From the NCBI GenBank assembly GCA_013822885.1, contig PNLC01000002.1:1-62245 (forward strand): a stretch of 62,245 nucleotides of DNA, written 5' to 3'. The notes beneath the pieces were generated by a model. It ran no database searches. It was not told where the DNA came from and saw only the letters and a list, made by a program, of their open reading frames with translations. Positions within the stretch are counted from its first letter, which is position 1. Each line of letters begins with the position of its first letter. Positions 33,198 to 60,954 of the stretch are shown piece after piece. The translations under genes and the position numbers were made by a program. The DNA is from Bradyrhizobium sp. GTDB taxonomy: Bacteria > Pseudomonadota > Alphaproteobacteria > Rhizobiales > Xanthobacteraceae.

Positions 33198-33890
33198 TTG
33201 AGGTCCGGTGCGTCATTCCTCGCTCAAAATCGCAGGTGGCGCCGGTCGTGCGCGCTCTCCCTTTGCGTGGCGCTCGCGATCTTGTCACCAATCGCGTTCG
33301 CAGACGATCGGAACGTGGACTTTGACATCCCGGCGCAGGCGCTGGACCCGGCGCTGAACGCCTTCCGCACCGCCGCCGGCGTTCAGATCTTCTACGAAAC
33401 CGCGCTTACGGTTGGCCGGAAATCGCAGGAGGTCAAGGGCAGTTTGGCGCCGGGGCGTGCCTTGCAGACGTTGCTCGGCGGGACGGGGCTCCAGGTTCGC
33501 CGAACCGACGTGGATGCCTTCGCCATCCTTCCCGGGCAGGCAGAGACGGATCGCGCGCCGGCGCCGGCAAGCCAGCCTGATGGACGTTTTGTAGGGGCGC
33601 TGCAGAACGGCGTCCTGGATCTGCTGTGCCGAAACAGTCAGACGCGGCCAGGCAGGTACAAGGTAGCGCTAGAACTCTGGATAGCACCGACCGGCGTCAT
33701 TCAACGTAGCGCACTCATGGCCTCCACTGGCGATGTGGCTCTCGATGCAGCCCTGCTCGGCGCGCTTCGGGGCGGCAGCATCGATGCAGTGCCGCCGGCC
33801 AATGTCGCCCAACCGTTCATTCTCAGCATTGTGCCGCGCGCCCCATCTGAAACCGGGGATTGTGGCGGCTCGTCGCAGACCATCAGGTAG
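33198..33890 (+). CDS. Exported STN-domain protein with C-terminal TonB_C-like domain (cassette 1)
   Basis: Signal peptide; FDIPAQALDPALNAFRTAAGVQIFYETALTVGRKSQEVKGSLAPGRALQTLLGGTGLQVRRTDVDAFAI (STN); ELWIAPTGVIQRSALMASTGDVALDAALLGALRG (TonB_C-like). TTG start. Confidence 0.75.
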   Translation: MRSGASFLAQNRRWRRSCALSLCVALAILSPIAFADDRNVDFDIPAQALDPALNAFRTAAGVQIFYETALTVGRKSQEVKGSLAPGRALQTLLGGTGLQVRRTDVDAFAILPGQAETDRAPAPASQPDGRFVGALQNGVLDLLCRNSQTRPGRYKVALELWIAPTGVIQRSALMASTGDVALDAALLGALRGGSIDAVPPANVAQPFILSIVPRAPSETGDCGGSSQTIR

Positions 33891-34650: not shown

Positions 34651-35664
34651 ATGGCATCCGCCGATGAGAAAACTGCAGCAATGACGGGCGCGGTCCGCTC
34701 GAAGGACGAGCTTGAGTCACTCAGACGCGAGGCCTGGACCAGGCTTCTGCACATCACATCCGGCCACGCCAGCAAGGCAGACGTCGCTGCGCTGAAGGTC
34801 TGGTGCGCGCAAAGCGCCTGTCATGCCGAGGTCTTTGCTGAGGTGAGCGGACGATGGCGCGCGTTCGGGCCGGCCATAGAGAACGTCACGCAATCCGCGC
34901 GGGCTTTGCGCGCGGGTGAGGCGGCACGAACAGGCATGCCGCTCGGACGTCGTGCATTCCTGGTCGGTGCCCTGGGTGCATCGGCGGCCGGGGCTGCCGT
35001 TATGATAGCGCAGCCGCCGATGCGGTTGTGGCCGTCACTCGGCGAGTTCGCTGCCGACTACCGGACCGCGACCGGCGAGCGCCGCCATATCGTGCTTGCC
35101 GCGCGCGCATCGGTAGATTTGAACACCGCCACCAGCATCAACGTCCGGGCTGCGGGCGACGGAGGCGATCAGATCGAGTTGATTGGGGGCGAGGCCGCAT
35201 TCGCGACACGATCCAGGCCGGTCGAGGTGATTGCCGGAAATGGCCGGGCCTGGGCCGACGACGCCCAGTTTAGTATCCGTCACAATAAATCCGACATCTG
35301 TGTGACATGTCTTGAAGGTTTGGTTCACGTCCAGCAGGAGGGGCGTTCCGCGACACTGCAGAAGAAGCAACAGGTCGTCTATGACGGTCGCAATCTGGGC
35401 CGCGTGCAGAGTGTCGACCCCGTCATCTTGACCGCGTGGCGCGAGGGCGAATTATTGTTTCACAACGAGCCGTTGGCGCGGGTTCTGGAAGAAGTCAATC
35501 GCTACCGGCCGGGCCGGATCATTCTCGTGAATGAGGCCCTCGGGCAAAGGCGGTTCACCGCGCAGTTCAAGCTCGATCGGCTCGAAGTGGTGATCACCCA
35601 GTTGAAAGCCGCATTCGGCGCGCGGGTGGTGTCGCTTCCGGGCGGCGTGGTGCTCGTGAGCTGA
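34651..35664 (+). CDS. FecR-like anti-sigma/sensor protein (cassette 1)
   Basis: N-terminal DUF4880-like W-containing domain, RRAFLVGALGASAAGAA TM, YRTATGERRHIVLAARASVDLNTATSINV FecR domain, C-terminal STN-like tail. Confidence 0.88.
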   Translation: MASADEKTAAMTGAVRSKDELESLRREAWTRLLHITSGHASKADVAALKVWCAQSACHAEVFAEVSGRWRAFGPAIENVTQSARALRAGEAARTGMPLGRRAFLVGALGASAAGAAVMIAQPPMRLWPSLGEFAADYRTATGERRHIVLAARASVDLNTATSINVRAAGDGGDQIELIGGEAAFATRSRPVEVIAGNGRAWADDAQFSIRHNKSDICVTCLEGLVHVQQEGRSATLQKKQQVVYDGRNLGRVQSVDPVILTAWREGELLFHNEPLARVLEEVNRYRPGRIILVNEALGQRRFTAQFKLDRLEVVITQLKAAFGARVVSLPGGVVLVS

Positions 35665-35685: not shown

Positions 35686-35887
35686 ATCGCACGATTTCGC
35701 GCGATGGGGTGAGATTCAGTCGGATCGTTGAAGGGGGAAGGTCACACCCTAAACTCGTTTGAAAAAATTCGGCGCAGCACGTTGCGCACTTGCCGTTGCT
35801 CACTCGTCTAGGGACGTCGGGAAAATCCGACGCTTGGCTGAAGCCGTGGGGGCGAAGGCCGATAATTTGACGAGAGAGTGCCAATTC

Positions 35888-38800
35888 ATGCTTCTGCCAG
35901 TTGTTGCCGCCGCACCGCGCTCTTTTTCCGCTCGTCGTCTCTCGAAACGCGCCTTGCTGTTCGCGGGTGTAAGCGCGACCGCGCTTTTCGCCGCTGGTCA
36001 TTGCGCGCTCGCCCGCCCCTTGGGCGGGCAGGCGCCGTCTCCGTCCACGGCGGCTATGGCAGCCGCGCAGGGAGCCTCGCAGGCCGCGCAGCAGGCGAGT
36101 AATGCGCTGAGGCGGGCCACGCAGTCGCTTCAGGCCATGCAGTCGGCGCAGCAGGCCGCCCGTGATCTCGCGCGGACCACGCCGACCACGGTGCAAAACG
36201 GCCTGCAGGCCGGTGGTCTGGTGGTGATGCCGGGCGCGACACCGGGGGCGACCGACGGCGGTGCGGGATTGTGGCAGGGCGCCAATCTGCCGACCGAGTC
36301 CTCGAGCGGCGGCCGCACCCAGGTCACGGTCAGGCAGAACCAGCAGAAGGCGATCCTGACCTGGAAGGAATTCAACGTCGGCCGCGAGACCGATCTCTAT
36401 TTCGACCAGCGCGCCGGCGGCGCCGACGTCCAGAACTGGATCGCGCTGAACCGTGTGGGCCCGGGCGCGGCGCCGAGCCAGATCCTCGGCTCCGTCAAGG
36501 CCGAGGGGCAGGTCTATGTCATCAACCAGAGCGGCATCATCTTCGGCGGCGCGAGCCAGGTGAATGTCCATACGCTGGTTGCTTCGAGCCTGAGTCTGTC
36601 CAATGCGCAACTCATGGCGGGCATCAACAATCCTCTTGTGAGCGGCGGCGGCGGCGACACCTATTCCGTGCCGCAATTCGGGTATCTTGGACAGCCGCGC
36701 CCAGAGGGGAGCTTTGAGATCGACGATCCCAGACAAGTCCCACGCACCGCGATCGGCGCGCCTGCCGGAGATGTGATGGTCGAGGCCGGTGCGCAGATCG
36801 CAACGGTCAGCGGCGGCAAGGCGATGCTGTTTGCGCCGCATGTGGTCAATTCCGGATCGATTTCGGCGCCGGATGGCCAGGTCATCATGGCGGCCGGTGA
36901 GCAGGTCTATCTCAGGACCAGCCTGATCGTGGAGCGTGACCTCACAAAGCCGTTTCATCTGAACGTGCGCGGTCTGGATGTGGCGGTTTCGGCACCGATG
37001 CCCTGGCTGTTCACTCGCAATCAGAAAAATTTTGACAATCAGAATTTCACCGTAGGCGTGCAAACCATCGTTCTTCCGGAAATGGAGGCGCGAGCGGCCG
37101 CGGTCGACTACCGCGTGGTGAATAATGGTGTCGTGCAGGCCGACCGCGGAAATATCACTGTAACCGCGCGCAACGTCGTTCAGAATGGCGCATTGCTCGC
37201 GGCAACCGCCCTGAACAACCGCGATGGCTCGATCCGGCTGCAAGCCTGGGGTCAGGGCATCCCGTGCGAGGGGGACTGTGGGACCAACAACTTTCTGTAC
37301 TGGTCGCCCGGCAGGGTAACGTTGGCGACAGGAAGCGTGACGGCGGCCATGCCAGATCTTTCCGACACCAGCGAGATGGAACTGTCGTCGCTGCTGACAC
37401 GCTACACGCCGGGGCGCGTCGAACTGCGCGGCGACCTGATCGACATCGAACAGCAGGCGAACGTCATTGTCCCCGCCGGCACCATCAGCGTGGTGGCGAG
37501 CAAAAATCCTTGGGCCGACGAGCAGCCGGTAGGCGAGACGCCGCGCGACGGCAGCCGGGTCTATATCGGCGAAGATGCCTATCTCAGCGTCGCCGGGCTG
37601 CAGGATGTGCTGTTGGCGATGGAAAGCAACGTCATCGAGGCGGAGCTGCGGATCAACGAGCTGCGCGACTCGCCGCTCTATCGGGATTCATGGCTACGCG
37701 GACAGACGGTCTATGTTGACCGGCGCAAGAGCGGAACGTTTACCGATGGTTTGATGTCCGGTGTGCGGTGGGTGACAAAGGACGGTAATTACATCCCCGG
37801 AGCCTGGGTCGGCACACCGCTTGCCGACGTATCGGCCTGGGTTGGCGTCGGCAAGACCAATCTCGCCGAACTGTCGACGCAGGGCGGTTCGATCATTCTG
37901 AAGTCGGCTGGATCGGTAGTCACGCGGTCAGGCTCGATCCTCGACGTCTCGGGGGGCTCGGTTCGCTATTCGGATGGCTGGATCAAAACGACCAGGCTGC
38001 TGGGCGCCGACGGGCGCATCTACGACATCGGAGATGCCAGACCGGATCAGGCATATGTGGCTCTCGCCGGAGGCTTCACCAGGTCGCACGCCCGCTGGGA
38101 CGTTACGGAGACCTGGACCAACCTGCTCGGCAAGTCGGGCGCTCGCTACGAGCGCGGTTACACCGAGGGCCGCAAGGCCGGCTCCATCCAGTTCTATGCG
38201 GGCGAAGGCGTCGTGCTTGAGGGCGGCTATTGGGGCGGCACGGTCGTTGGCGAGCGACAGGCTGGCACGGGCGAACTCGCGCAGGCGGGTACAATGACGT
38301 TCGGCGGCACGGGCGACGACAAGAAGCTGTGGTTGCTGGGCAATCTGATCATAACCAACGATCCGGTTCTGCTGCCGGCAGATTTCAGCGCGACGACGCC
38401 GCTGGCGTCATCCTGGTATTCCGGCAGCCCGGGCGTTACGGATTCATTCCTGTTCCGCACGACCTATCTCGATTCCGATGTGCTGGGCGCTGCCGGCTTC
38501 GGCGCGATTGAACTCTATGTCACGAAGAGCTTCTCGCTGGAGAAGGGCACGGCTCTCGAGTTGGCGCCAGGCAGTTCGTTTACGGTCGAAGCCAACACCG
38601 TCGACGCCTACACCCAGGATTTCAGGATCGACGGCGTGATCCGAGCGGCCGGCGGCAGCGTGAAGCTCAATCAGGCGGAGAACGTGTATTTTGGTTCTGG
38701 CGCTGCCATTGACGCCAGCGGTCAATGGGTCAACCAACGGACGGGTGCCGCAACGATAGCAGCCCCGGTCATCGGCGGTGGTAGCATCGAGGTCATGAAT

Positions 38801-41800
38801 GCACGGTTCGAGTCGGGCGCCGTTCTCGATGTCTCCGGCGGCGGCTGGTACCGACTGCAAAAAAGCAAGTATGAGCTGCGGGCAGGGGACGCAGGCGCGA
38901 TCACTCTTTCCGACGTCGACGCTGCGCAACTCCTGAAGGCCGATCTGCGCGGCTATGCGGCCGGGTCGGGCGGCAGCCTCACCTTCGACACGAGTTCGTC
39001 CCTCCGGATCGGCGGCACTGCTTCGGCGCCCGCGGGTACCGTCCGTCTGGCGGAGACGCTGTACTCCGACCTTGGTTTCCGTTCGGTCCAGATCACTTCT
39101 GGCGGTGACATTACCGTTGCGGACGGGGCCACCATCAGGCAACTGCCGCACAGCATCGACATGACGGACGCCGCCCGCGTCGACTCGGGCGCATCGATTA
39201 CAGAGTTGGGCTCGCTGGTCGTGCTGCCGTTGTCGCAGCGTGCGGACCTCGCGCCGACGTCGCTCTCGCTCACGGGCCGCAATGTGACGATCGGAACCGG
39301 GGCCACGGTTGCGACCGATGTCGGCGGCAGCATCACCGTGGCGGTTCAGAGCACTACGGCCGGCGGCACGATCAGGATCGACGGCCGGCTGGAGGCGCTG
39401 GCTGGAAAGATCAATGTTCTGGCTGGATCGGGGACGGTCACCGTCGCCAGCACGGCGGCGCTCGTGGCGAACGGCCTGGCACTCATCGAAACGGATGGCC
39501 GGGGACAGCGGGATGGCGTCGTGCTCGGCGGCGGCTCGGTGACCTTGGATGCCGGTTCTATCGTTATGGAATCCGGTTCGCTGATCGACGTCTCGGGCAC
39601 CAGCGGGGAGATCGACGTGCCAGCGGGCGGGACGCTGGGATCGCGCGGGCGCGTACCGGTCACGCTCGCCAGCGACGCGGGCTCCATTTCGGTCAAGGGC
39701 CAGGGACTGATCGAGGGAACATGGCGCGGCAAGGCCGGCGGCAGCGGCGCGCGCGGCGGTGCTGTAACGTTGGCCACCACGACGACGCCTGTGATCCTGT
39801 CCGACAGCGCGGTCGCGCAGGCGGGGTTGGTCTTCCGTCCGTCAGTGCTTCAATCGTCCGGTTTCGCCGATCTCACTCTCAATGCAATCAGCAGTTTCGT
39901 CCGGCTTGAGGGGGTCGACCTCACGCTTGCGGGCTCGATCTCGATCAGCGGTGCCCTGGTCAATGGCAACGGCGCGGATTCGCGCCTGTCGGCATCCTAC
40001 CTTTCGCTGTATGGAACATCTGCCGCCGCCTCCGCGTCGAACGGCACGCTGACGCTCGCGGCCACCCTGATCGACGTCAAGCAGGTGGCCATCCGCGGCT
40101 TCGCGGAGGCAGTGCTGGACGCGTCCGATATTCGGCTTGTCCCGTACAGTGCCGCCCAGCCGGCGTCGCTCGACATGGCCGGCGTTCTGGTCTTGAGGGC
40201 CGCGCAAATCTATCCGGCCTCGCAAACCAGCGCGACGATCAAGGCGAGCGAAAAGATTATCGTGCAGCAGAACGGCGTCGCGGGTGTGGCGCTGTCCGCA
40301 GGCGGCTCCCTGACGCTGGAGGCGCCGGTGATCGAGCAGGGCGGCACGCTGCGCGCGCCATTCGGCCAGATCGTTCTGAAGGCGTCCGGCAAGTTGACCC
40401 TTGGCGCGGGAAGCGTCACCTCCGTAACGGGCGACGGCCAGATTCTGCCTTACGGCAATCTCAGCGACAACGAGAACTGGACCCTGCCCACCGGCACCGG
40501 CCTGCTGCCCATCATCACGAGCCCACCGGAGAAGCGCATCACGCTGGAAGCCCCGAGCGTCGACCTTGCGTCGGGATCGGTTGTCGACATCCGCGGCGGC
40601 GGCGATCTTCACGCCTGGGAACACGTGGCGGGACCCGGCGGGTCGCATGACGTGCTGACGCGCCCGGGAATGTACGCGATCATGCCGTCGCTGGGCGCGG
40701 TAACCGCGATAGGCGAGCGGATCTGGCTCGACGGCGGCAACGGGATCGCCGCGGGGTGGTACACGCTGCTGCCGGCGCGCTATGCATTGTTGCCGGGCGC
40801 CTACGCCATCCAGATGATGAGCGGCGCGCAAGGCGCGTCGATTCGAGGATCCGTAGGCCTCGCCGACGGTTCCGCGATGATGAGCGGCTATCGCGGCAAT
40901 GCACTCGACGGCAGTCGTGATCAGTTGCGGTCGTCCTGGCGCGTGATGTCGGGCGACGTCGTCCGCAACTACAGCGAATACAACGAGGCCTTCGCCAATA
41001 CGTTCTTTGCCTCCGATGCCTTCAAGCTGACGCAGTATCGCTTGACCGGCAAGGAAATCGTCACGCCGCGGCTGCCCATGGATGGCGGCGCTGTCGTGTT
41101 CAAGGCGACGCAGGACCTGATCTTGAACGGGCAATTGCGCTCGCAGGCGGCGGACGGCGGCCGCGGCGGACTGGTGGATATCGCAGCGGCGAAGATCGCC
41201 GTCGTCGGCGCGGAGCAGGATGCGGGTAATTTGCGCACCAGCGGCTATCTGGTGCTCGACGCCACCAGCCTGTCGAACGTCGGCGCCGGCAGTCTGCTGC
41301 TTGGCGGCATACGCAGTGGCGATACGCGCGGCCTGCGCGTGGATGTGACCGCCGATGACATCATCGTGCGCAACAGCAGCGGTTCGGCGTTGACGGGGTC
41401 GGAGATCATCCTGGCCGCCAGCGAGACCATCGACATCGGCGCCGGCAGCGTCATCGCCGCGCGCGGCGAAGCGCCGAGAGGGTCAGGCGATCTGGTGGTG
41501 GCGCCGCAAGTGGCGCAACTTCCGCAAAACAATGGCACGCCCACAGATCCGAGCGACGATTTCGTGATACCGTCGCGGGACTGGGGCGCGCTGATCCGGC
41601 TGTCGAACGGCGACGCGGTGCGGGTGATCCGCGAGAACGTGGACCTTGCGGCCGGCGGCGTGGTGACGATCGGCGCGGGCGCGACGCTTGCGGGCGGCAA
41701 GGCGCTGCTGATCGACGCCACCCGCAACACCCATATGCAGACCGGCGCGCAGCTTTCGGGCGCGACCCTGTCGGTCGCGTCCGGCCGCATCGGCTTTGGT

Positions 41801-47428: not shown

Positions 47429-47705
47429 GTCCGCGCCCCTTTTTGCAAACGGCTTGATGTATAAGTGGTCGAGCCAATCGGCGACGAGACCGGCTGCCTC
47501 GTTTGAATTCGACTGTGCGGTTGAGACGAGGGCCCGGTCAGCAATGCAGCCGTCGCAAATCAACCCTGGCGTGCAAATGCTGTATTCAGCATGTCATATT
47601 TGCTTTGCTATTTCCGTGCTTGAATGACCGTTAGCACGGCAAGAGCGGTTACGATGCGCAAGGCTGGACTGCCCGGATGCCGCCTGCGCGTCCTATTCGG
47701 GTTTC

Positions 47706-48482: not shown

Positions 48483-48485
48483 CCA

Positions 48486-49070: not shown

Positions 49071-50054
49071 ATGAGCGGGTTGGATCGACAGTCGTTGTCG
49101 CTGCAACGCGATGCGCTGGAACTGATCATGAATGCAAAGTCCGGCGCTGCGACCGCAGGCGATTTGCAATGCCTGGAGGAGTGGCGCGTGCGGAGCAGCG
49201 CTCATACCGAGGCGTATCGCAAGGCCGTCATCATCTGGGACGCGCTTGGGACGGCCGCCCGCGAAACCGCGAGCGCGGAGGACCGGGATTTCATCGCCGG
49301 CCGGCGGACCGCGCGGACGCCTGCCGTCGGACGCCGGGCTTTCCTTGTGGGAGGGTTTGCCGCGTCCAGCGCTGCTGCCGGCTTGCTGATGGTGCAGCCG
49401 TCGCTCGGGGTCCGGCCGTTCGTCGCCGACCTGCTCGCCGACTATCGGACCGAAACGGGAGAGCAGCGCTTGATCGCGCTGGGCGAGGGGGTGTCAGTCG
49501 AGATGAATACTCGTACCAGTATCGACCGCCGCTTGGCCTCGCGCGGAACCTCGATCGAGTTGATCTCCGGCGAGGCTGCCATTTCGGCCGAATGCAGCGA
49601 GGAACGGCCGGTATCCGTCCTTGCGGCAGGCGGCAGGAGCCGTTCGGCGAAGGCCAAATTCGCCGTTCGTCATGGCGGGGGGCCGGTGCGTGTTGCCTGT
49701 CTTGAAGGGCTTGTCGTGGTCGAGCTTGACGGAAACTCCGCCATCTTGAGGGCCGATCAGCAACTATCCTATTCGGCTCGCGGAATTGGTCCGGTCGCGA
49801 CTTTCGATCCGACAGTGGTCGCGGCGTGGCAGCGAGGGTTGCTGATTTTTCGCGAGGAACCGCTGGTCGACGTCCTCGCTGAGGTCAATCGCTACTGGCA
49901 GGGCCGGATCATTCTCCTCAACGCCGACCTTGGCCAGCGCCGCGTGACGGCGCGGATCGAACTGGCACGCGTGGGCGAAGTGATCTCGTATGTCCAAAGC
50001 GTTCTGGGAGCGCAGGTGCGGACGTTGCTCGGCGGCGTCGTGTTGTTGAGCTGA
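49071..50054 (+). CDS. FecR-like anti-sigma/sensor protein (cassette 2)
   Basis: GRRAFLVGGFAASSAAAGLLM; DYRTETGEQRLIALGEGVSVEMNTRTSID; VACLEGLVVVELDGNSAILRADQQLSYS; WQRGLLIFREEPLVDVLAEVNRY. Confidence 0.88.
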   Translation: MSGLDRQSLSLQRDALELIMNAKSGAATAGDLQCLEEWRVRSSAHTEAYRKAVIIWDALGTAARETASAEDRDFIAGRRTARTPAVGRRAFLVGGFAASSAAAGLLMVQPSLGVRPFVADLLADYRTETGEQRLIALGEGVSVEMNTRTSIDRRLASRGTSIELISGEAAISAECSEERPVSVLAAGGRSRSAKAKFAVRHGGGPVRVACLEGLVVVELDGNSAILRADQQLSYSARGIGPVATFDPTVVAAWQRGLLIFREEPLVDVLAEVNRYWQGRIILLNADLGQRRVTARIELARVGEVISYVQSVLGAQVRTLLGGVVLLS

Positions 50055-50135
50055 GAGGAAAAACATTCCAGAAGGTGGTTAGCTGGAGGTGTCCGCCTTT
50101 CGTCTCTACAGCAGGGAAGCGACAGGCGCGGATCG

Positions 50136-50157: not shown

Positions 50158-50208
50158 AGCGGAGCGTCGTTGGCTTCCCGTCGAATTCACGGGGCGGGAG
50201 TCAAGACA

Positions 50209-53200
50209 ATGTCGAAGCCGAAACAGCCGGGAACGTCAGTCGCTGGCGTTGGGGGCACGCAATTGCGGCGGGTCGCCTTGCTCGGCAGCGTCAGCATGTT
50301 GTCGCTGTTCGCGATGACGGCTGTGGCGGATGCGCGGCCCCTTGGCGCAAGATCGGGGACCAATCCCGCGGCGGCCGCTTTGCCGAGTGCGGAGCAGGCA
50401 GCAATGGCGTTGCAGCGGACCAGCGCTTCGCTCGCGCGCACCAGCCAGGCGCTTCAGGCCATGCGCGCTGCGCAGAATGCCGCCCGGATTGCGGCTACGG
50501 CCGGCGCGACGACCGTGCCGAACGGGCAGGTCGCGGGCGGGCTGGTGGTCGACCCCGCCGTGGCGAACGATCCAGCGCTATGGAGCAATGCCCAACTGCC
50601 GAAGCCCGATACGCTGTCGAATGGCCGTACCCGGGTGGAGGTCGTACAGACCGCGCCGAAGGCGATCCTGACCTGGCAGAGCTTCAATGTCGGGCGCGAG
50701 ACCGATCTTTATTTCAACCAAACCGCCGGTGGCGCCGATGCCGCAAACTGGATCGCGCTCAACCGCGTGACCGATCCGGGTATTGCCCCCAGCCGTATCC
50801 TGGGCACCATCAAGGCCGATGGGCAGGTCTATGTCATCAACAAGAACGGCATCATTTTCGGCGGCGCGAGCCAGGTCAACGTTGCGTCATTGGTGGCGTC
50901 GTCGCTGAGCCTGTCGAACACGCAGTTCCTGGCCGGAATCAACATTCAGCGAAGTGCCGGCGGTGCGAGCTACTTACTTCCGCAATTCGGCGAGTTTCCC
51001 ACGAACGAGACCGGGAATGTTCCGGCTCCGTACATTCCCGGCAACGTCCTCGTGGAGGCCGGCGCCCGGATCGTCAGCGGTAAACAGGGGCTGGTGGCGC
51101 TGTTCGGATCGAACGTCGCCAATCGCGGCACGATCGAAACGCCGAGCGGCCAGACGCTGCTGGCGGCAGGCGAGAACGTTTATCTAGGGTCGAACGACGC
51201 GAAGATCATCGGTTTGCGGGCCTATGTCAGCACGCGACCGGAAAGCATACAGGCGTCTTTTGGCGATGCTCCGGCTCTCTATGCCCGCACCGCGCTGGTC
51301 GGGATGAACGCGGTCAACGACGGCATGATCGTTGCGCCTGAAGGCAACATCAGCATCGTCGGCTACAAGGTCGTCCAGAACGGCCTGCTGCAGGCGGTGA
51401 CGACGCTGAATGCGGCGGGCAACATTTCGCTGATCGCCCACGATGGGTACCGTTTCAGCCCATTTGGCGGCAATTCGGACGCACGCGCCGGCGAACTGAT
51501 CCTGGGGCGGGACAGCGTCACGACGGTGCAGATCGATCGCGACCCGCGCACCGGCGGGACCGCCGGCGATTCCTCGTTCGTCCGGCTGTGGGGCAATACG
51601 GTTCTGCTCGAGAAGAATGCCCTTGTCCAATCGGAAGCCGGGCAGATTTCCGTCGGCGCCTTCAGCAAGTTTGAATCGGGTTCGTCGAGCCTCGAATTGC
51701 CTACTGTGCCGCCCGGTGCTGGTTCGCGCTTCATGATGGAGGCGGGCTCGGTCCTCGACGTGGCAGGCGTGCTCGGCGCCGAGGTGGCGATGGAGAGCAA
51801 CTCCGTCCAGGTGGAGGCGCGAGCGAACGAACTACGGGACGCGCCATTGCAGCGCAACGGCATCCTGGCAGGCAAGAAGATCTGGGTCGACCGGCGCGTG
51901 ACCGGCAAGCGGGAAGACGGCACCGCCTGGATCGGTACGGAATTGGTCGATGCGAACGAGTACGACGCCAACGTGCCCAAGTCGATGGGCGAGCGCGCGG
52001 TCAAGGGCGGCAAGGTGACGATGTACGCCGGCGAAGTGGTGGTCATGCCCGATGCGGAGATCAAGCTCGCGGGCGGCTCGGTCCGCTATCTCGACGGCTA
52101 TATCAAGACGACGAAGCTCGTGGGAGCGGACGGCCGCCTCTACGACATCGGCCGCGCGCCGGTCGATATGCCTTATGTCAGCATCTACAGCGGCTTTGTG
52201 GTGGATCACAGTCGCTGGAAGGTCAGCGAGGTATTCACCTCGCCGTTCTCGCGCGACCGGTTCGAAAAAGGCTATGTGCAGGGCGCCGCCGCGGGGATGT
52301 TGGAAATCCATTCGCGTGTTCAGGTGCTGGATGGCCGCATCGCTGCCCACACGATCGTGGGAGATCGCCAGATCAGTTCACCGCCCGCCGGCGGCGGGTT
52401 AAAGATTGGCTCAGTGTCGCCACCGGATACCAGCTTCAACGCCAACCACCTGAGGCTACAAGCCGCCGCCGGCGGCCTGCCCAGCAATTTCACCATCAAG
52501 AGCGCGTTGCCCACGGATCGAACTTCGACGCTGGTGCTGTCGACCGAAATGCTCAGTGAGAGCGGATTGTCTTCTGTCGAACTCATCTTGAACGGGAATG
52601 TCGTCTTCGCACCCGACTCCGACATTCGCCTGCGGCCGGGCAGCATCCTTTCGGTCAACGGCGGCGCGGGCAGGTCGATGACGTTCGACGGTTCGATCCG
52701 GGTGCCCGGCGGCCTCGTCGGCCTTTCGGTTGCAGGCGGACCCATTGTGTTCAAGGCGGGCGCCAAGATCGATGTGAGCGGCCAGTGGACCAACTATCTC
52801 GTTTCGCCCGCTACTGGTCCACGAACTCCGAATGGCGGCAGCATCGGTCTGACCGGCAACATCACCTTTGATTCCGATGTCGTGCTGGCCGCGGATGCGG
52901 GGGCAACGGTCAGCAGCAAGGGCAAGTTCGAGGCCGGCACGGCCGGCTCTATCTCGCTCGGAAGCTCGAATGTCATCGACCTGAACTCCGTAACCATGAG
53001 CGCTTACGGTTTGGCAACTTCCGGCCAGGTGGCCGTGGGCCCGCTCGGGGGACATCTCAGCCTCGCCGTTCCCGCGATCCTGATCGCAACAAATGGCGCG
53101 GCACCTGGCGGTAGCGTCACCCGACTGGATCCATCCTTCTTCGACCGCGGCGGCTTCAGCAAGTTCACGTTCACACTCGCAGGAATCGAGGATGGGCTGA

Positions 53201-56200
53201 CATTTGCGCCCAAGGTCCAGACCAAAATCCTGGCTGCCGATGATTTATCGAAGGCGTCCAACGACGCTGTCGGGTCGATGGGTGCGGCGACCACGCTCTC
53301 GGCGGCCCAACGGCCGGGCACCAGCCTCGCACTGACAACCGCCGGTGATTTCGTATTGGGAGCCAACACCGTGATCACACCTGGAACCGGCGGCAGCGTC
53401 AGCCTCGCCAGCGGCGCCAGCAACAAACTCACTATCGCTGGCACGATCAGCGCGCCAGCCGGCTCGATCACTCTTACCGGCAACAACATCTCGCTCGCCT
53501 CGACGGCGCAATTGCTCGCGCGCGGCGTCGCCCGCATCGTTGCAGACGGGCGCGGCCTGCGCAGCGGCGACGTGCTGGACGGCGGTAGCGTCATCATCAA
53601 TCCCACGCGCGAAGGCAACCTCGCCGCCGGGGCGCTGATCGACGTATCGGGGACAAGCGGAACGATCGATGTCGCCGACAATACGCGTGGAATCGGAATG
53701 CAGACCCGGCCGCTGACGCTCGCCAGCGACGGAGGCAGGATATCCATCAGCGGCAGTGGCGGCCTTGTCGCAAGCACCCTGGTCGGCAATGCAGGCGGCG
53801 CCGGGGCCGCGGGTGGCAGCCTTTTGCTCAGCGCGGCGTCTCCTACTGTGAGCGTCAGCAGTGTGCCAACTACAGTTTACTTCCAGGACGCCAACGGCCT
53901 GTGGCAAAGCCGCACCGCCACGCAGGATATCGACATATTCAACGAATATTCCGGCGCGGCCATCACGTTGAATTCGGTGGTGTCAGCCGAGAGGACCAAA
54001 TTGATCAACGCCACGCGGAATGGCAGTGGTGGCCTGCTGACTATCATCAACGACGACACGCTGATTCCAGGCGCGGCGGGCTGGGAAAACGTCAGCACCT
54101 CCCTGCAGGAAGTCGATCCGACAATACTTCAAAACTCGCTCAATGCTGCTGCGCTGTACACGAAATACTTCTACAGCCGCAGCGGCACCAGTCCGAATTT
54201 CGTCTATACGAAGCTGAACTACACTCCCGTCATTTCAGAATTCACCGTCCGGCAATCCGCCTTCCAGCAGGGCGGATTCGCCGACATCAGTCTGAGCGGT
54301 TCGAAAATAGGCGTCCGCTTTGGAGATGGCGTGGATATCTCGGCCGACCGGCGAATCTCCGTGACAGCGGCCATGGTGACAAATTGGAGCGGCGCCAGCG
54401 CAACGCTCCGCGCTCCACTGGTGAATTTCGACGCAGGCAAGGCGACGGTGACCGCAGCCAGCCGCGCCGGCACATTCTCGGTCATCGCTCAACAGATCGA
54501 CGTGTCGAAAGCGGCGTTCAAGGGCTTTGCCGAAGTAAGACTGAACAGCGCCGGAGATCTGCTGCTTTCCGGAAGCGCTTCAAACCCGGCGAGTCTATAC
54601 GTGGACGGTAGGTTGAACCTGATTGCCGGTCAGATCTATCCGACCACCCAGACAACGGCGAGGATCACGGCCACTCGGACGATCACGGTGGATCAGAACG
54701 GCGCGCATCCGGTGGCGCCTCTTTCCGCCGGCGGCAATCTCATCCTGGCAGCGCCCGCGATTGTCCAGAACGGAACGCTGCGGGCGCCCTTCGGGCAGAT
54801 CACGCTCGATGCGACGACGAGCCTGACGCTCAGCGCCGGCAGCCTGACATCCGTTTCCGGCGTCGGCTTGATCGTGCCCTTCGGCCGGATCGTCGACGAC
54901 GTGCTGTGGTACACGGACCAGAGTCCCAACACGCCTATTCTGGCGCCGCCGGAAAAGCGCCTGACGCTCAAGGCGCCGGCAGTGGACATGCAGACTGGCT
55001 CGATCGTCGACCTCTCGGGCGGTGGCGACCTGCTTGCCTACGGGTTCATTCCCGGCTCGGGAGGCTCATCGGATTACCTGGATCCGGCAAAATATCCCGG
55101 CGCCTCAGCGATACTGCCGATCAGCATGGTCTCAAACCATGTCGGCAAGCGGATCATCCATCTCGATGGTGGCAACGGCATCCCGGCCGGCGCCTATGTC
55201 GTGATGCCGGCGAGCTATGCATTGCTACCCGGCGCCTATCGGCTGCAGGAAATGACGGGGAGCAATGGGCAGCCGCTTTATGACTTTACCGGGTCGGCGC
55301 GGCTCACCGATGGCTCGGTGGTGCTGTCGGGCTGGGGTTATACCAGCGGAAGCAATCTTCGCGATCAACGAGCGCAGGCCTACAAGATATCGCCGATCGA
55401 AACGATCCGGCAGCGATCGGAATACAAGATCTGGACCGCGAACGAGTATTTCAGGTCGAACGAATTCGTCGAAGCCGCCCGCCGCCAACTGAGCGTCGAT
55501 GTGACCGCTATTCCACGTCTGCCGATGGACGCGGGAGCGTTGCAGATTCAAGCGACGCTCTCGGCGATACTGGGCGCAACCCTGCGTGGTTCGGCTGAAG
55601 CGGGGGGACGCGGCGCGGCAATCGACGTCGCGGCTAGCAATATTGCGGTGGTGGGAGGCGTCGACGGCGCAAGCTACAGAGCCGCCGGTTATCTCGTGCT
55701 CGACGCGGCGCAATTGTCGGCGTTCGGCGGCGAGAGCCTGCTTCTGGGCGGCACGCGGCTGCAGACGGTGAGCGGCCTCGAGGTGGACGCTACCGCAACC
55801 AACGTCGTGATCGCGACCGACGGCACGGTCGCGAACGCTCTCGCCGCGCCCGAAATCCTCATTGCCTCGGAGAATGCGATTCAGGTTGCCGACGGCAGCC
55901 TGATCGAAGCGCGTGGAACCGTAGGGGGCGCATCAAGCAACATCCTGATCAAGCCTGCGATCGCCGCCGTGACCGACGCTGGTGGAAACGTGACGACACC
56001 GGCGCGCGACTTTGGTGCTTTCGCTCGGATCTCGAACGGCGCGGTGGTGCGCGTCGTTCGTGATGGCCCGCAGCAGACCCAGGGCACGCTCACGATCGGC
56101 GCGGCAACGCTTCGCGGCAATAACATCATCCTGGACGCCACCAGGACGACAAGCGTCTCGGCTGGCGCCGCGCTGCTCGGCCGGGTGCTCGACGTGACCA

Positions 56201-59200
56201 GTTCTCGCATCAGCATCGGCACGCCGACCGGAACTCCCGGCGGGTTGATTCTCGCCGGTGGCTCGTTGGCCGCCCTGCTGAATGCGGTCGATCTGCGCTT
56301 GCGCAGCTACGGCACGATCGATTTCTATGGTGACGTCGGGCTCGGCACCCGGCATGCTGACGGGAGCTTCACCCTGGCCTCACTGCTGCTGGACGCCGCG
56401 GCGCTGAACAGCAACGCCGCCGCCAATGTCAGTGTGGCTGCAGGCGAGGTTTCGATCGTCAACACCATTGGCGGAACCGGCGCGAGCCTGGGCGGCGCCG
56501 GCGGAACGCTGGCAATCACCGCGAACACGCTTTCCCTGGGCGCAGGCACGAAGAAAATAGAGGGGTTCAGCGCCGTGCAACTCGCGGCGAGCAAGGCCAT
56601 TGTCGGCCGCAGCAAGGGATCGATCGACTTCGGATCTGCCAATCTCGCCTTCAATACTCCACGACTGACCGCGGAGAGCGGCGCCTCCCAGGATTGGACC
56701 ACGGCGGGCACATTTGGGCTGACGGGGACCCCGGCGAGCGACGCCTTCGAGACCCTGGGAGCACGGCTGGCGATCACGGCCGGCGCGATCACCCAGAGCG
56801 GGTTGATCGACGTGACTGCCGGATCGCTGACATTGCGGGCGACCGTTGGCAACGTCACGCTGGCGTCAGGCTCGATCATCCGGGCGTCGGGGTTCACACG
56901 CACGTTCTACGACCAGCGGGTCGAAATCGCCGGCGGCACGATCGAACTGATCTCCGACCACGGCGTGGTGGTGGCGCAGGCCGGATCGCTGCTCGACGTC
57001 TCTGCGGTCGGGACAGGCAGGGCCGGGACGCTGTCGATCGCGACGCCAGAGCAGACTGCGGAGTTCGACGGCGAATTGCGCGCCGGCCACAGCGGCAACT
57101 TCACGCTCGATACGGGGGGCATCGCGAGTTTCGCGGCGTTGTCGGCAAAGCTTGCGGCCGGCGGCTTCGACGGCGACTTGCGCCTGCGCCTGCGTGCCGG
57201 CGACGTGACGCTCGACGGCGCGACACGGGCATCTTCCTTCGCTCTGTCGGCCGATGCCGGCAGCATCACCGTCACCGGCACGATTGATGCCAGCGCGGCT
57301 GCCGGCGGCACGATCCGGCTGTCGGCTAGGCAGGACTTCACGCTGGCGAGCGGCGCGGTGCTCAGAGCCAATACCAGCGACCCCAGGAATAGCTCGGGTC
57401 TGATCGAGCTCGTGGCGGCGGAAGGCAGCATGGATCTGCGAGCCGGCGCGACGATCGAGACCCTCGGCGGGCGGAGCGGCGCCGGCGAGATTCGCTTGCG
57501 CTTCAAACGCGATGACGCTGCCGGTACCGTCAAGCTGGTCAGTGCGGCAGCGATGCTGTCGGCGACGACGATCATCGCCGAGGCCTATCGCGCTTATGAC
57601 ACCACGTCGGTGAACGCGACGCTGCCGGGAGCGCTCGCCGATGCGGCGAGTTTCATGGCAAGTCATGCCGCATCGATCGAGACGGTCCTCGGCCGTGACG
57701 ACGACCCGAGATTCCATCTGGTTCCGGGCATCGAATTGTACTCGACCGGCGATCTCACTTTGTCCTCGGCCGTCCACTTGGGCAATGAACGGTACAACGG
57801 CGAGGCGGGGGTACTCACCTTGCGCGCCGCAGGCAACCTGATGCTCAACGGCAGCCTCTCGGACGGGTTCTCGAGCGCTGCCGCCAACGCCGCAGTGCAG
57901 ACCACAGGCACGTCATCGTGGTCGTACCGACTGGTCGGCGGCGCTGCGCTCGATGGTGCAAGCCCGCTCGCGGTGCAGCCGATAGGCGCGTTTGCTGGCG
58001 GCACGAGCGGAAATGTGAAGCTTGCCAGCGGCACCATTGTCCGCACCGGTACCGGCTCGATCACGGTCGTGGCAGGCAACGATGTCGTGCTCGCCGACCA
58101 GAAGGCGGTCATCTACACGGCTGGCGCGCGCGTTGCCGATCCGACGCTGGGCGGCATGTACACCGGCACCCTGGACTATGGCGCCACCAATCCAACGCCC
58201 AACAATCCCAACAACCCGCCCCCCGTCATCATACCGGTGTTTACCGAGGGAGGCGGCGACGTTGTTGTCAGCGCGCAGAACGACGTCAAGTCGCTGGTGG
58301 CAAGCGACCAGATGATCATCGACTGGCTCTGGCGCGACGGGGCAACCAACGCCGACGGCTCGTTCGTCGCGAACCGGCAGACCGCCTGGTGGATCAATTT
58401 TGCGCGCTTCGAGCAGGGCATCGCCGCGCTCGGCGGCGGAAATGTCTCCGTCGGGGCGCGCCGCGATATCGTCAATGTCTCGGCCTTTACGCCGACGCAG
58501 GGCCGCGTCGGCGGCGGCCGCACCTTGTCGGAGGCCAGGACCGCGGCCATCACAGGCGGTGGCGACCTCTCGGTCTCGACCGGCCGCGACCTCATCGGCG
58601 GTATCTACTACGTCGACAAGGGCACAGGTATCATTTCAGCCGGTCGGGCCATCACCTCGAACCGCATTGTCAGTTTTGATCCGGACGGATCTGGATCGCA
58701 GCAGCCTCGCGACGTCGCGATCCGTACGTTGCTGGGACAGGGCGACGCGTCGCTCAAGGTCACGGCCGGCGGCTCGATCGACCTTGGATCCGCCAGCAAT
58801 CCGACTATGTGGGACCAGGCAGACTATCAATTCATCTGGAGACCCTCCAATCCACAGAAAGGCTACTTCTCGACCTACGGGGAGAGGACCGAACTCGAAC
58901 TGCTGTCGGTGGGTGGCGACATCAATCTATGGAATCAATCGGGCTACCTGTCCTCCGCCGCGCCGGCGTGGGCCACCTACAAGGCCGGAAATTCGAACGG
59001 CCTCTCGGGCCCAACCACGGTATTCTATCCGCCACGCATCAAGATGATTGCCGCCGCAGGCGACGTCACGATCCAGGGGGGTATGGCGATCTGGCCATCC
59101 GCCTACGGCAACGTCGATCTCTGGGCACAAGATACCGTCACCCTTCTTACGCAAACGAGATCCGGCGCGGGGCTGGAGGGCATCTTGTACAGGACGCTTG

Positions 59201-60954
59201 TGCTGTCGTCGGTCAATCCCGAAAGAATGGGAACAGTTCTGCGGCCGGTCCGCTCTTTGTTCATGGCAGGAGGAGCCCCCCTCGACGAAGTGGGTCTCGA
59301 CGGCGTCTTCACTGCGAATACCTTCAAGGACACTGGCCTGCTGCACGCGAACGATTATGAGCCGAGCCGAATCTACGCCAACACGGGCGATATCAACGGG
59401 GCGAGCGGGCAGGCGTTCTATCAGTATTTTGCCGAGCAGACCTGGTTCCGGGCGGGCCGCGATATCAACAACATCAAGGTGGCGACCCAGAACAATCATG
59501 CATCAGACCTGACCCTGTTCCAGGCGGGCCGCGACATCAACCTCGCTCTCGGCCGCATCACAATCGATGGTCCAGGTTTCGCGCTGGTTGAAGCCGGCCG
59601 CGACGTCTTCCTCGGCAAGGGCGGCGGCATCCAGACGGTGGGGAACGGCGAGAAACCGGGGACCAGCGGAATCGAGCCACCCACCTATCGCAATCCCTAT
59701 TTGCCCAGGAAAGGCGCCGATCTCGTCGTCATCGCGGGGACCGCGGACGGGCCGCGTTACGACGATTTCACGGCCGCCTATCTCGACCCCGCGAACGTCG
59801 CATTGATGCCGCCTTACATGGTCGAGAACGGGAAGTCGATGTATTTCGATCAACTCGTCGCCTTCATGCGGGTGGTGACTCGTGACGCGATGCTGTCCGA
59901 GGCCACAGCGTTCGCTGCGTTTCGGGACCCGAGCTTTGCCGACCATCGCAAGATATTTATCGACCGCGTGCTGTCACGTGAGCTGCGCGCCGCCGGTCGC
60001 GGCCAGGACGCCGGCCTGGGCGGGCAGGGGCTCGGCTACGAACGTGGCTACGCCGCGATCGCCAGGCTGTTTCCGGGCGCCGAGCAGCGCGGCAACAAGG
60101 GCTGGCAAGGCGACGTCATCATGGACGTTTCGATGATCCGCACCTACCGCGGCGGCGACGTCGACATCGTCGCGTCTGGCGGCATGCTGCAAGTCAGCGC
60201 GCTGTCATCGAGCGCGACCGGCGAGAAGAACGGCGTCCTGACCATCAATGGCGGCGAGATCCGCATCTTCACCGGCGGCAGCACCATCATCAACAAATCG
60301 CGCATTCTCACCGCGCGCGGCGGCGAGATCACCATCTGGTCGACCTTCGGCGACATCGATGCCGGCAAGGGACGCAAATCATCGCTGACTTCGCCGTTGC
60401 GGACCTATCGGCTCTCGACCGATGGCAACATCGCCTACGATCTCAATCCGAGTTTCACCGGCAGCGGCATCTCGACCCAGAAAGGCACATTGGATGCGGC
60501 GGTCGCGGACGTCGACCTGTACGCACCCAACGGCATCATCAACGCCGGCGACGCCGGCATCTCAAGCTCCGGTAACATCTATCTCGGCGCACTGGAGATC
60601 CGTGGAGCCGACAACATCCAGGCCGCGGGCGAGATCAAGGGACTGCCCAAGGCTACGACGACGGTCGCGCTGACTGTCGAGACCAAGGACAAGGCGGCAT
60701 CCGACGCGCTGAGGGATGCGACCCAGGCCGCGCCACAGGAGCGTCCTTCCGTGATTATTGTCGAGGTGCTGGGCTATGGCGGCGGCGCGGGCGTCGAGGA
60801 CGAGGACCAGAGGCGCGAACAGCGCAGCGATAACGGTGCACCAGCCTATAATCCCAACGGCCCGGTCCGTATCGTCGGTGTCGGTGCTTTAACCGAGGAG
60901 GAAAAGCAGTCGCTGCGCGAGAGCGAAAGGAAGCAGATCGGTTCTGCACCGTAG
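50209..60954 (+). CDS. Giant filamentous-hemagglutinin-family exoprotein 2 (about 3581 aa)
   Basis: Signal peptide ending ADARPLG; ILTWQSFNVGRETDLYFNQ...WIALNRV...GQVYVINKNGIIFGGASQVNV; repeat-rich body; C-terminus SVIIVEVLGYGGG. ATG at 50209 chosen over ORF start at 50089. Confidence 0.88.
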   Translation: MSKPKQPGTSVAGVGGTQLRRVALLGSVSMLSLFAMTAVADARPLGARSGTNPAAAALPSAEQAAMALQRTSASLARTSQALQAMRAAQNAARIAATAGATTVPNGQVAGGLVVDPAVANDPALWSNAQLPKPDTLSNGRTRVEVVQTAPKAILTWQSFNVGRETDLYFNQTAGGADAANWIALNRVTDPGIAPSRILGTIKADGQVYVINKNGIIFGGASQVNVASLVASSLSLSNTQFLAGINIQRSAGGASYLLPQFGEFPTNETGNVPAPYIPGNVLVEAGARIVSGKQGLVALFGSNVANRGTIETPSGQTLLAAGENVYLGSNDAKIIGLRAYVSTRPESIQASFGDAPALYARTALVGMNAVNDGMIVAPEGNISIVGYKVVQNGLLQAVTTLNAAGNISLIAHDGYRFSPFGGNSDARAGELILGRDSVTTVQIDRDPRTGGTAGDSSFVRLWGNTVLLEKNALVQSEAGQISVGAFSKFESGSSSLELPTVPPGAGSRFMMEAGSVLDVAGVLGAEVAMESNSVQVEARANELRDAPLQRNGILAGKKIWVDRRVTGKREDGTAWIGTELVDANEYDANVPKSMGERAVKGGKVTMYAGEVVVMPDAEIKLAGGSVRYLDGYIKTTKLVGADGRLYDIGRAPVDMPYVSIYSGFVVDHSRWKVSEVFTSPFSRDRFEKGYVQGAAAGMLEIHSRVQVLDGRIAAHTIVGDRQISSPPAGGGLKIGSVSPPDTSFNANHLRLQAAAGGLPSNFTIKSALPTDRTSTLVLSTEMLSESGLSSVELILNGNVVFAPDSDIRLRPGSILSVNGGAGRSMTFDGSIRVPGGLVGLSVAGGPIVFKAGAKIDVSGQWTNYLVSPATGPRTPNGGSIGLTGNITFDSDVVLAADAGATVSSKGKFEAGTAGSISLGSSNVIDLNSVTMSAYGLATSGQVAVGPLGGHLSLAVPAILIATNGAAPGGSVTRLDPSFFDRGGFSKFTFTLAGIEDGLTFAPKVQTKILAADDLSKASNDAVGSMGAATTLSAAQRPGTSLALTTAGDFVLGANTVITPGTGGSVSLASGASNKLTIAGTISAPAGSITLTGNNISLASTAQLLARGVARIVADGRGLRSGDVLDGGSVIINPTREGNLAAGALIDVSGTSGTIDVADNTRGIGMQTRPLTLASDGGRISISGSGGLVASTLVGNAGGAGAAGGSLLLSAASPTVSVSSVPTTVYFQDANGLWQSRTATQDIDIFNEYSGAAITLNSVVSAERTKLINATRNGSGGLLTIINDDTLIPGAAGWENVSTSLQEVDPTILQNSLNAAALYTKYFYSRSGTSPNFVYTKLNYTPVISEFTVRQSAFQQGGFADISLSGSKIGVRFGDGVDISADRRISVTAAMVTNWSGASATLRAPLVNFDAGKATVTAASRAGTFSVIAQQIDVSKAAFKGFAEVRLNSAGDLLLSGSASNPASLYVDGRLNLIAGQIYPTTQTTARITATRTITVDQNGAHPVAPLSAGGNLILAAPAIVQNGTLRAPFGQITLDATTSLTLSAGSLTSVSGVGLIVPFGRIVDDVLWYTDQSPNTPILAPPEKRLTLKAPAVDMQTGSIVDLSGGGDLLAYGFIPGSGGSSDYLDPAKYPGASAILPISMVSNHVGKRIIHLDGGNGIPAGAYVVMPASYALLPGAYRLQEMTGSNGQPLYDFTGSARLTDGSVVLSGWGYTSGSNLRDQRAQAYKISPIETIRQRSEYKIWTANEYFRSNEFVEAARRQLSVDVTAIPRLPMDAGALQIQATLSAILGATLRGSAEAGGRGAAIDVAASNIAVVGGVDGASYRAAGYLVLDAAQLSAFGGESLLLGGTRLQTVSGLEVDATATNVVIATDGTVANALAAPEILIASENAIQVADGSLIEARGTVGGASSNILIKPAIAAVTDAGGNVTTPARDFGAFARISNGAVVRVVRDGPQQTQGTLTIGAATLRGNNIILDATRTTSVSAGAALLGRVLDVTSSRISIGTPTGTPGGLILAGGSLAALLNAVDLRLRSYGTIDFYGDVGLGTRHADGSFTLASLLLDAAALNSNAAANVSVAAGEVSIVNTIGGTGASLGGAGGTLAITANTLSLGAGTKKIEGFSAVQLAASKAIVGRSKGSIDFGSANLAFNTPRLTAESGASQDWTTAGTFGLTGTPASDAFETLGARLAITAGAITQSGLIDVTAGSLTLRATVGNVTLASGSIIRASGFTRTFYDQRVEIAGGTIELISDHGVVVAQAGSLLDVSAVGTGRAGTLSIATPEQTAEFDGELRAGHSGNFTLDTGGIASFAALSAKLAAGGFDGDLRLRLRAGDVTLDGATRASSFALSADAGSITVTGTIDASAAAGGTIRLSARQDFTLASGAVLRANTSDPRNSSGLIELVAAEGSMDLRAGATIETLGGRSGAGEIRLRFKRDDAAGTVKLVSAAAMLSATTIIAEAYRAYDTTSVNATLPGALADAASFMASHAASIETVLGRDDDPRFHLVPGIELYSTGDLTLSSAVHLGNERYNGEAGVLTLRAAGNLMLNGSLSDGFSSAAANAAVQTTGTSSWSYRLVGGAALDGASPLAVQPIGAFAGGTSGNVKLASGTIVRTGTGSITVVAGNDVVLADQKAVIYTAGARVADPTLGGMYTGTLDYGATNPTPNNPNNPPPVIIPVFTEGGGDVVVSAQNDVKSLVASDQMIIDWLWRDGATNADGSFVANRQTAWWINFARFEQGIAALGGGNVSVGARRDIVNVSAFTPTQGRVGGGRTLSEARTAAITGGGDLSVSTGRDLIGGIYYVDKGTGIISAGRAITSNRIVSFDPDGSGSQQPRDVAIRTLLGQGDASLKVTAGGSIDLGSASNPTMWDQADYQFIWRPSNPQKGYFSTYGERTELELLSVGGDINLWNQSGYLSSAAPAWATYKAGNSNGLSGPTTVFYPPRIKMIAAAGDVTIQGGMAIWPSAYGNVDLWAQDTVTLLTQTRSGAGLEGILYRTLVLSSVNPERMGTVLRPVRSLFMAGGAPLDEVGLDGVFTANTFKDTGLLHANDYEPSRIYANTGDINGASGQAFYQYFAEQTWFRAGRDINNIKVATQNNHASDLTLFQAGRDINLALGRITIDGPGFALVEAGRDVFLGKGGGIQTVGNGEKPGTSGIEPPTYRNPYLPRKGADLVVIAGTADGPRYDDFTAAYLDPANVALMPPYMVENGKSMYFDQLVAFMRVVTRDAMLSEATAFAAFRDPSFADHRKIFIDRVLSRELRAAGRGQDAGLGGQGLGYERGYAAIARLFPGAEQRGNKGWQGDVIMDVSMIRTYRGGDVDIVASGGMLQVSALSSSATGEKNGVLTINGGEIRIFTGGSTIINKSRILTARGGEITIWSTFGDIDAGKGRKSSLTSPLRTYRLSTDGNIAYDLNPSFTGSGISTQKGTLDAAVADVDLYAPNGIINAGDAGISSSGNIYLGALEIRGADNIQAAGEIKGLPKATTTVALTVETKDKAASDALRDATQAAPQERPSVIIVEVLGYGGGAGVEDEDQRREQRSDNGAPAYNPNGPVRIVGVGALTEEEKQSLRESERKQIGSAP

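What the first reader, a model, noticed from the sequence alone, without database searches (positions are those of the whole stretch)
33198..60954. Tandem pair of STN / ECF sigma / FecR / giant FHA exoprotein cassettes
The same four genes in the same order and strand occur twice back to back (33.2-47.4 kb and 47.7-60.95 kb). All four proteins of cassette 1 have recognisable but well-diverged paralogs in cassette 2. Classical FecI/FecR cell-surface signalling controls a TonB-dependent receptor carrying its own STN domain. Here the STN is a separate small exported protein, no receptor barrel is present, and the gene at the regulated position encodes a giant FHA-like exoprotein. Hypothesis: a receptor-independent surface-signalling circuit that senses exoprotein export or surface contact, duplicated into two specificities.
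Basis: partly seen in the sequence, partly recalled or inferred. Interest (0 to 1): 0.85.

Follow-up and report, generated by a model that had tools for sequence, protein, structure and literature searches.

The report
Two PUMA3-type VreAIR exoprotein operons
Two neighbouring gene sets each pair a giant secreted surface protein with its own barrel-less signalling system; this is the Alphaproteobacterial form of the known Pseudomonas 'PUMA3' system, and comparison with relatives suggests that phosphate starvation switches on the signalling genes and their sigma factor then switches on the secreted protein.

Summary
Two cassettes, STN protein / ECF sigma / FecR / TPS-DUF3739 exoprotein, lie at 33.2-47.4 and 47.7-60.95 kb, and a third is on contig C13. 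The reading as a new circuit is not right. The 'STN protein' also carries a TolA/TonB C-terminal domain, which makes it VreA of the PUMA3 system (VreA/VreI/VreR controlling tpsA/tpsB), described in P. aeruginosa in 2009; the same paper reports fourfold-repeated PUMA3 clusters in Rhodopseudomonas palustris. In 109 of 110 non-redundant loci VreR is preceded by VreA and sigma; 77 are followed by an exoprotein and 23 by TpsB. VreA, sigma and VreR co-evolve as a unit. The two window cassettes are old paralogues, not a local duplication (AU p = 9e-6). Added here: pho boxes are strongly enriched upstream of vreA; one ECF-type promoter motif lies upstream of tpsA and tpsB but not vreA; 15 of 16 genomes hold a single close TpsB, and exoprotein TPS domains resemble each other within a genome while the regulators do not; six genomes lack both VreA and the periplasmic part of VreR. 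The wiring is inferred; the signal VreA senses is unknown. New member of a known kind, with one testable regulatory prediction.

The parts
33198..33890 (+). VreA-like protein 1 (STN + TonB/TolA-type C-terminal domain, no beta-barrel; TTG start)
   Evidence: Pfam STN 62-103 and TonB_2 150-201, both below gathering cut-offs; NCBIfam FecA signalling part 3.3e-13; aligned with VreA2 and C13
34070..34636 (+). ECF sigma factor 1 (VreI-like)
   Evidence: Pfam Sigma70_r2, r4_2
34651..35664 (+). FecR-type anti-sigma / sigma regulator 1 (VreR-like)
   Evidence: DUF4880 + FecR + weak FecR_C
35783..35816 (+). Predicted ECF-type promoter of exoprotein 1 (TGCGCACTTGCCGTTGCTCACTCGTCTAGGGACG), 19.7 bits, held out of training
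   Evidence: a motif learned only from tpsB promoters also scores it at the 99.9th percentile of random windows
35888..47428 (+). Giant TpsA/FHA-like exoprotein 1 (probable ATG start; the longest ORF begins at TTG 35759)
   Evidence: TPS and DUF3739 Pfam hits; start revised from promoter position
47580..47597 (+). Candidate pho box upstream of VreA2: CTGTATT-CAGC-ATGTCAT (11/14 matches)
   Evidence: 1.5-2.5% of random 360-bp windows reach 11/14
47706..48482 (+). VreA-like protein 2 (STN + TonB/TolA-type C-terminal domain)
   Evidence: Pfam STN 4.9e-11; TIGR01352 tonB_Cterm just over cut-off; AF2 model pLDDT 80.5 matches PupB STN and the TolA C-terminal domain
48486..49007 (+). ECF sigma factor 2 (VreI-like)
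49071..50054 (+). FecR-type anti-sigma 2 (VreR-like)
   Evidence: family profile matches the PupR C-terminal signalling domain, PDB 6ovk_R, 2.9e-37; AF2 pLDDT 86.6
50079..50112 (+). Predicted ECF-type promoter of exoprotein 2, 11.6 bits (between 1.6% and 3.1% of random 300-bp windows score as high)
50206..60954 (+). Giant TpsA/FHA-like exoprotein 2 (probable ATG start; the longest ORF begins at GTG 50089)
   Evidence: TIGR01901 FHA N-terminal domain 4.2e-20

Best explanation
Each cassette is a PUMA3-type (VreA/VreI/VreR) regulatory operon followed by its own TpsA exoprotein gene. Inferred working: phosphate starvation (PhoB) helps transcribe vreA-vreI-vreR. VreR, in the inner membrane, holds and licenses the sigma factor. 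The periplasmic VreA docks on VreR's periplasmic domain through its STN lobe and on an unknown envelope partner through its TonB/TolA-like lobe. When VreR releases the sigma factor, it transcribes the downstream exoprotein gene from an ECF promoter. In relatives, the exoproteins of one genome very probably share a single TpsB pore, encoded in a separate VreAIR-tpsB-exbB-exbD-tonB cluster. Shown here: gene content, domain architecture, fold, regulator co-evolution, motif enrichment, one-TpsB pattern in relatives. Known from P. aeruginosa only: PhoB dependence, VreI dependence and VreR inhibition. Inferred: the wiring in this organism and the VreA-VreR contact.
For: Bilobal VreA: STN in 63 of 67 members; PDB matches 6ovk_B (PupB STN, TMt 0.89) and 2x9a_B (TolA C-terminal domain, TMt 0.74), the same two folds on which VreA was modelled. 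VreR profile matches PupR's STN-binding domain, 2.9e-37. Gene order: 109 of 110 non-redundant VreR loci have VreA and sigma upstream, 77 then tpsA, 22 tpsB. VreA/sigma/VreR distance matrices correlate at 0.76-0.79 against 0.16-0.19 when partners are swapped within genomes, 0 of 2000 swaps as high. Pseudomonas-like synteny: L169 has VreA-sigma-VreR, a type II secretion set and tpsA, with 31-35% end-to-end identity to window proteins. Pho box: 30 of 93 vreA upstream regions against 16 of 636 random windows, P = 3e-18, and at most 9 of 93 for 150 permuted words. ECF motif: LLR 402 against 172-182 on shuffles; present at all three own-genome exoprotein genes held out of training (19.7, 11.6, 10.0 bits), absent upstream of vreA; a tpsB-only motif transfers to tpsA regions, P = 4e-12. 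One close TpsB in 15 of 16 relatives.
Against: The tpsB-exbBD cluster is not in this genome's assembly (81% complete, 1026 contigs); the only ShlB-type gene is a weak relative elsewhere. Cassette 1 has only a 10/14 pho-like site, which 14% of random windows reach. Cassette 2 and C13 promoter scores are modest, and the C13 promoter is not found by the tpsB-only motif. Regulator and TPS-domain distances correlate only weakly (0.17-0.22). In P. aeruginosa vreA deletion had no effect in low phosphate, so VreA's role is unproven anywhere. No expression data were available.
Confidence: 0.85

Rival explanations
1. Export-feedback variant: VreA's TonB/TolA-like lobe reads the state of the shared TpsB pore or of the exoprotein in transit, so each cassette senses export of its own TpsA.
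For: VreA is nearly always encoded with tpsA or tpsB; the tpsB cluster encodes its own TonB, ExbB and ExbD, and VreA's C-terminal lobe is recognisably like that TonB's C-terminus.
Against: No interaction data. Regulator and TPS-domain distances are only weakly correlated, although TPS domains are held similar within genomes.
Confidence: 0.2
2. VreA is largely dispensable: phosphate starvation raises sigma above VreR, and VreA only modulates the output.
For: In P. aeruginosa the regulon is induced in low phosphate without VreA (PMC4971064). Pho-box enrichment upstream of vreA here. Six relatives keep sigma plus a VreR cut to about 88 aa and lack VreA.
Against: VreA is retained in 109 of 110 loci with full VreR and co-diverges with it, which argues for selection on the contact.
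Confidence: 0.35
3. Recent tandem duplication of one cassette.
For: Same gene order, same strand, adjacent.
Against: Cassette 1 is 81-86% identical to a Bradyrhizobium sp. Ai1a-2 cassette in VreA, sigma and FecR; cassette 2 groups with Rhodoplanes (support 100); AU p = 9.3e-6 against sisterhood.
Confidence: 0.02
4. A contact-dependent inhibition (CdiA-type) locus with an unusual regulator.
For: Large TPS-domain exoproteins.
Against: C-termini end in DUF3739 and a short tail with no toxin domain; no TpsB and no small immunity gene directly downstream.
Confidence: 0.03

Closest known systems
PUMA3 / VreA-VreI-VreR cell-surface signalling of Pseudomonas aeruginosa with PdtA/PdtB (Llamas 2009 PMC2729926; PMC4971064)
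   Same: Gene order vreA-vreI-vreR; bilobal VreA (STN + TolA/TonB C-terminal domain) without barrel; link to tpsA, and in relatives to tpsB-exbBD-tonB and a PA0696-position gene; pho box at vreA; ECF promoter at tpsA and tpsB but not vreA.
   Different: Here each tpsA has its own VreAIR triad; no type II secretion genes between them; pho boxes are not enriched at tpsA or tpsB, whereas P. aeruginosa has them there too.
Fourfold-repeated PUMA3 clusters of Rhodopseudomonas palustris and Janthinobacterium (mentioned in PMC2729926)
   Same: Several VreAIR-tpsA cassettes per genome plus one VreAIR-tpsB-exbBD cluster: the same arrangement as in the relatives here.
   Different: The paper mentions the arrangement only. 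Pho boxes, shared promoter, co-evolution and old paralogy are added here. The tpsB cluster is missing from this incomplete assembly.
FecIRA / FpvA-FpvI-FpvR / PupB-PupI-PupR iron cell-surface signalling
   Same: STN signalling domain, FecR-type regulator with PupR-like signalling domain, FecI-like ECF sigma.
   Different: No TonB-dependent receptor barrel or plug; the target is an exoprotein, not an iron receptor.

Membership tests
PUMA3 (VreAIR) cell-surface signalling | Small periplasmic VreA with STN N-lobe and TolA/TonB C-lobe and no beta-barrel | tested here: met
PUMA3 (VreAIR) cell-surface signalling | vreA-vreI-vreR adjacent in this order on one strand | tested here: met
   109 of 110 related loci
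PUMA3 (VreAIR) cell-surface signalling | VreR is a FecR-type regulator with cytoplasmic anti-sigma and periplasmic STN-binding domains | tested here: met
   DUF4880 + FecR + FecR_C; 6ovk_R 2.9e-37
PUMA3 (VreAIR) cell-surface signalling | Linked tpsA exoprotein under control of the sigma factor | tested here: inconclusive
   Linkage met and promoter motif present; control itself needs experiments
PUMA3 (VreAIR) cell-surface signalling | vreA operon under PhoB (pho box) | tested here: inconclusive
   Met for the family; 11/14 box at cassette 2; not significant at cassette 1
PUMA3 (VreAIR) cell-surface signalling | tpsB-exbB-exbD-tonB genes in the same genome | tested here: inconclusive
   Found in relatives; not in this 81%-complete assembly
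PUMA3 (VreAIR) cell-surface signalling | Direct sequence homology to Pseudomonas VreA and VreR | tested here: inconclusive
Classical FecIRA cell-surface signalling | TonB-dependent receptor with plug and barrel carrying the STN domain | tested here: not met
   VreA-like ORFs are 230 and 258 aa with no barrel; no receptor gene in the cassettes
Contact-dependent inhibition (CdiBAI) | C-terminal toxin module with adjacent immunity gene and CdiB | tested here: not met
   Pfam finds only TPS and DUF3739; no TpsB adjacent

The most novel reading that the evidence does not exclude
Every exoprotein carries its own VreA 'export reporter': VreA's TonB/TolA-like lobe monitors one shared TpsB pore or the passing TpsA and tells VreR, so that several giant surface proteins of one cell are expressed under separate feedback through a single secretion pore.
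Probability: 0.15. Interest if true: 0.75.

Novelty: new member of a known kind. Interest (0 to 1): 0.4.

Why it matters
It shows that a regulatory system studied as a Pseudomonas virulence curiosity is a recurring control module for giant exoproteins in Bradyrhizobium and its relatives, mostly environmental and plant-associated bacteria. The pho-box and promoter findings predict that phosphate limitation drives surface exoprotein display there, which can be tested with simple reporters. Genomes with several triads and one TpsB, and genomes that lack both VreA and VreR's periplasmic domain, offer natural experiments on what VreA does, which is still unknown in Pseudomonas.

Tried and rejected
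Tandem duplication: rejected by relatives, tree and AU test. CDI locus: rejected, no toxin or immunity. Neighbouring ORFs 29414-32365 as TpsB: rejected, they are an AI-2E transporter and a metallophosphatase. Literature on DUF3739 or on Bradyrhizobium with FecR/FHA/PhoB: nothing relevant found.

Full report
What is there. Cassette 1 (33198-47428) and cassette 2 (47706-60954) each encode a small exported STN protein, an ECF sigma factor, a FecR-type regulator and a giant TPS/DUF3739 exoprotein. The cassettes share 42-46% identity gene by gene. A third complete cassette lies on contig C13:2640-15953. The genome is an 81%-complete assembly in 1026 contigs and belongs to the same genus code as many 6-10 Mb genomes.

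What the small protein is. It is not only STN. Its C-terminal half matches TonB C-terminal families. An AlphaFold2 model (pLDDT 80.5) matches the PupB/FpvA/FecA signalling domain (6ovk_B, TMt 0.89) and separately the TolA C-terminal domain (2x9a_B, TMt 0.74). This is the architecture published for VreA of P. aeruginosa, modelled on FpvA and TolA (PMC2729926). The same paper describes PUMA3 control of a two-partner secretion system and states that in R. [quoted passage not shown] The finding is therefore a member of a described kind.

How general it is. A profile of the FecR protein (VreR) recovered 80 named loci, from Bradyrhizobium, Rhodopseudomonas, Tardiphaga, Rhodoplanes, Rhodoblastus, Hyphomicrobium, Methylosinus, Reyranella, Telmatospirillum, Dyella and others. 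Combined with the relatives this gave 110 non-redundant VreR loci: 109 have VreA and sigma directly upstream, 77 are followed by tpsA, 22 (plus one with VreA elsewhere) by tpsB, and 10 by neither, several of them at contig ends. The tpsB type reads VreA-TonB-sigma-VreR-TpsB-ExbB-ExbD-PA0696-position gene-TonB-porin. The sampling favours the best VreR matches, so these are counts within the family and not a census. In an even sample of 399 genomes of the phylum, matches covering both lobes of VreA in a short reading frame were seen in about a dozen genomes (my count from the table). One of these, outside the class (L169), has VreA-sigma-VreR, then a type II secretion set (G, K, L, M, D, E, F), then tpsA, the Pseudomonas layout of PUMA3. 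Its VreA and VreR align end to end with the window proteins at 31% and 35%.

Evolution. Distances among VreA, sigma and VreR correlate strongly (0.76-0.79) and collapse when partners are swapped within genomes (0.16-0.19; 0 of 2000 swaps reach the observed value). The triad is inherited as a unit. Triads linked to tpsB form one group (support 100). The window cassettes are not sisters: cassette 1 is closest to one of Bradyrhizobium sp. Ai1a-2 (VreA 81%, sigma 86%, FecR 83%), cassette 2 to Rhodoplanes, and sisterhood is rejected (AU p = 9.3e-6). By contrast, TPS domains are more alike within a genome than between genomes (0 of 5000 permutations, also after correcting for FecR distance), while FecR shows no such effect (p = 0.85). 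With one close TpsB in 15 of 16 relatives examined (the sixteenth, G051, shows pieces on several contigs), this fits several exoproteins being held compatible with one shared pore. That is an inference.

Regulatory DNA. Pho boxes (CTGTCAT-N4-CTGTCAT, at least 11 of 14 matches) occur upstream of vreA in 30 of 93 non-redundant loci against 16 of 636 random windows (P = 3e-18), mostly on the sense strand and mostly at -50 to -145; no permuted word exceeds 9 of 93. They are not enriched upstream of tpsA (3 of 77) or tpsB (0 of 23). Cassette 2 has an 11/14 site at 47580-47597. Cassette 1 has only a 10/14 site, which is not significant. A bipartite motif, T(T/G)CGG-TT ... CGTCTT with a fixed spacer, is found between vreR and tpsA or tpsB (LLR 402 against 172-182 for shuffles). 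With all own-genome sequences held out it is found at 35783 (19.7 bits), at 50079 (11.6 bits) and upstream of the C13 exoprotein (10.0 bits), and not upstream of vreA. A motif learned from tpsB regions alone transfers to tpsA regions (P = 4e-12), though it does not find the C13 site. In P. aeruginosa vreA is PhoB-dependent and the pdtA and phdA-pdtB promoters need VreI and PhoB (PMC4971064). The wiring here is predicted to be similar, except that no pho box is seen at tpsA.

Exceptions worth having. Nine of 30 long DUF3739 exoprotein genes with enough flank lack the triad; they are longer (median 4392 aa against 3970 aa), and two of them (in genomes that have a VreAIR-tpsB cluster) carry the promoter motif. 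Six genomes carry a sigma gene with a VreR reduced to about 88 aa, the cytoplasmic anti-sigma part only, and these genomes have no full-length VreA (the sigma neighbour was read in three of them). Joint absence of VreA and of VreR's periplasmic domain supports the idea that VreA works through that domain.

What is not known. The signal, VreA's envelope partner, and whether sigmas of different cassettes cross-talk. VreA deletion had no effect in low phosphate in P. aeruginosa. No expression data were available here, and this assembly lacks the tpsB cluster.

Noticed in passing
L061:9916-10804, L063:5379-6384, L064:9078-9951; L179-L184: Sigma gene next to a VreR cut down to about 88 aa (cytoplasmic anti-sigma part, no periplasmic domain), near a VreA-less tpsB-exbBD cluster; the six genomes concerned have no full-length VreA.
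   Followed up: partly
L011:1939-2499, L012:728-1285, L016:829-1572, L141:7917-8477: An extra ECF sigma gene resembling the tpsB-cluster type lies at or just past the 3' end of some exoprotein genes, apparently without its own anti-sigma.
   Followed up: no
L022, L026-L029, L031, L038, L040, L042: A longer class of DUF3739 exoproteins (median 4392 aa) without an adjacent VreAIR triad; two of nine carry the same ECF-type promoter motif.
   Followed up: partly
L010:4317-6107: The only ShlB-type TpsB in this genome's assembly, beside a CHASE2-like/GGDEF-type protein and a FecR-domain protein (read from sequence, not profiled); only distantly related to the PUMA3 TpsB.
   Followed up: no
window 34948-34953 (VreR1) and 49332-49337 (VreR2): An invariant twin arginine followed by a hydrophobic stretch (RRAFLVGG) in VreR proteins looks like a Tat-type signal anchor.
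   Followed up: no
window 2107-26014: The rest of the window looks like ordinary chromosome: MoeA, COX1 oxidase, antiporter-like subunits (Proton_antipo_M, MnhB), an AcrB-type efflux pump with HlyD partner.
   Followed up: partly
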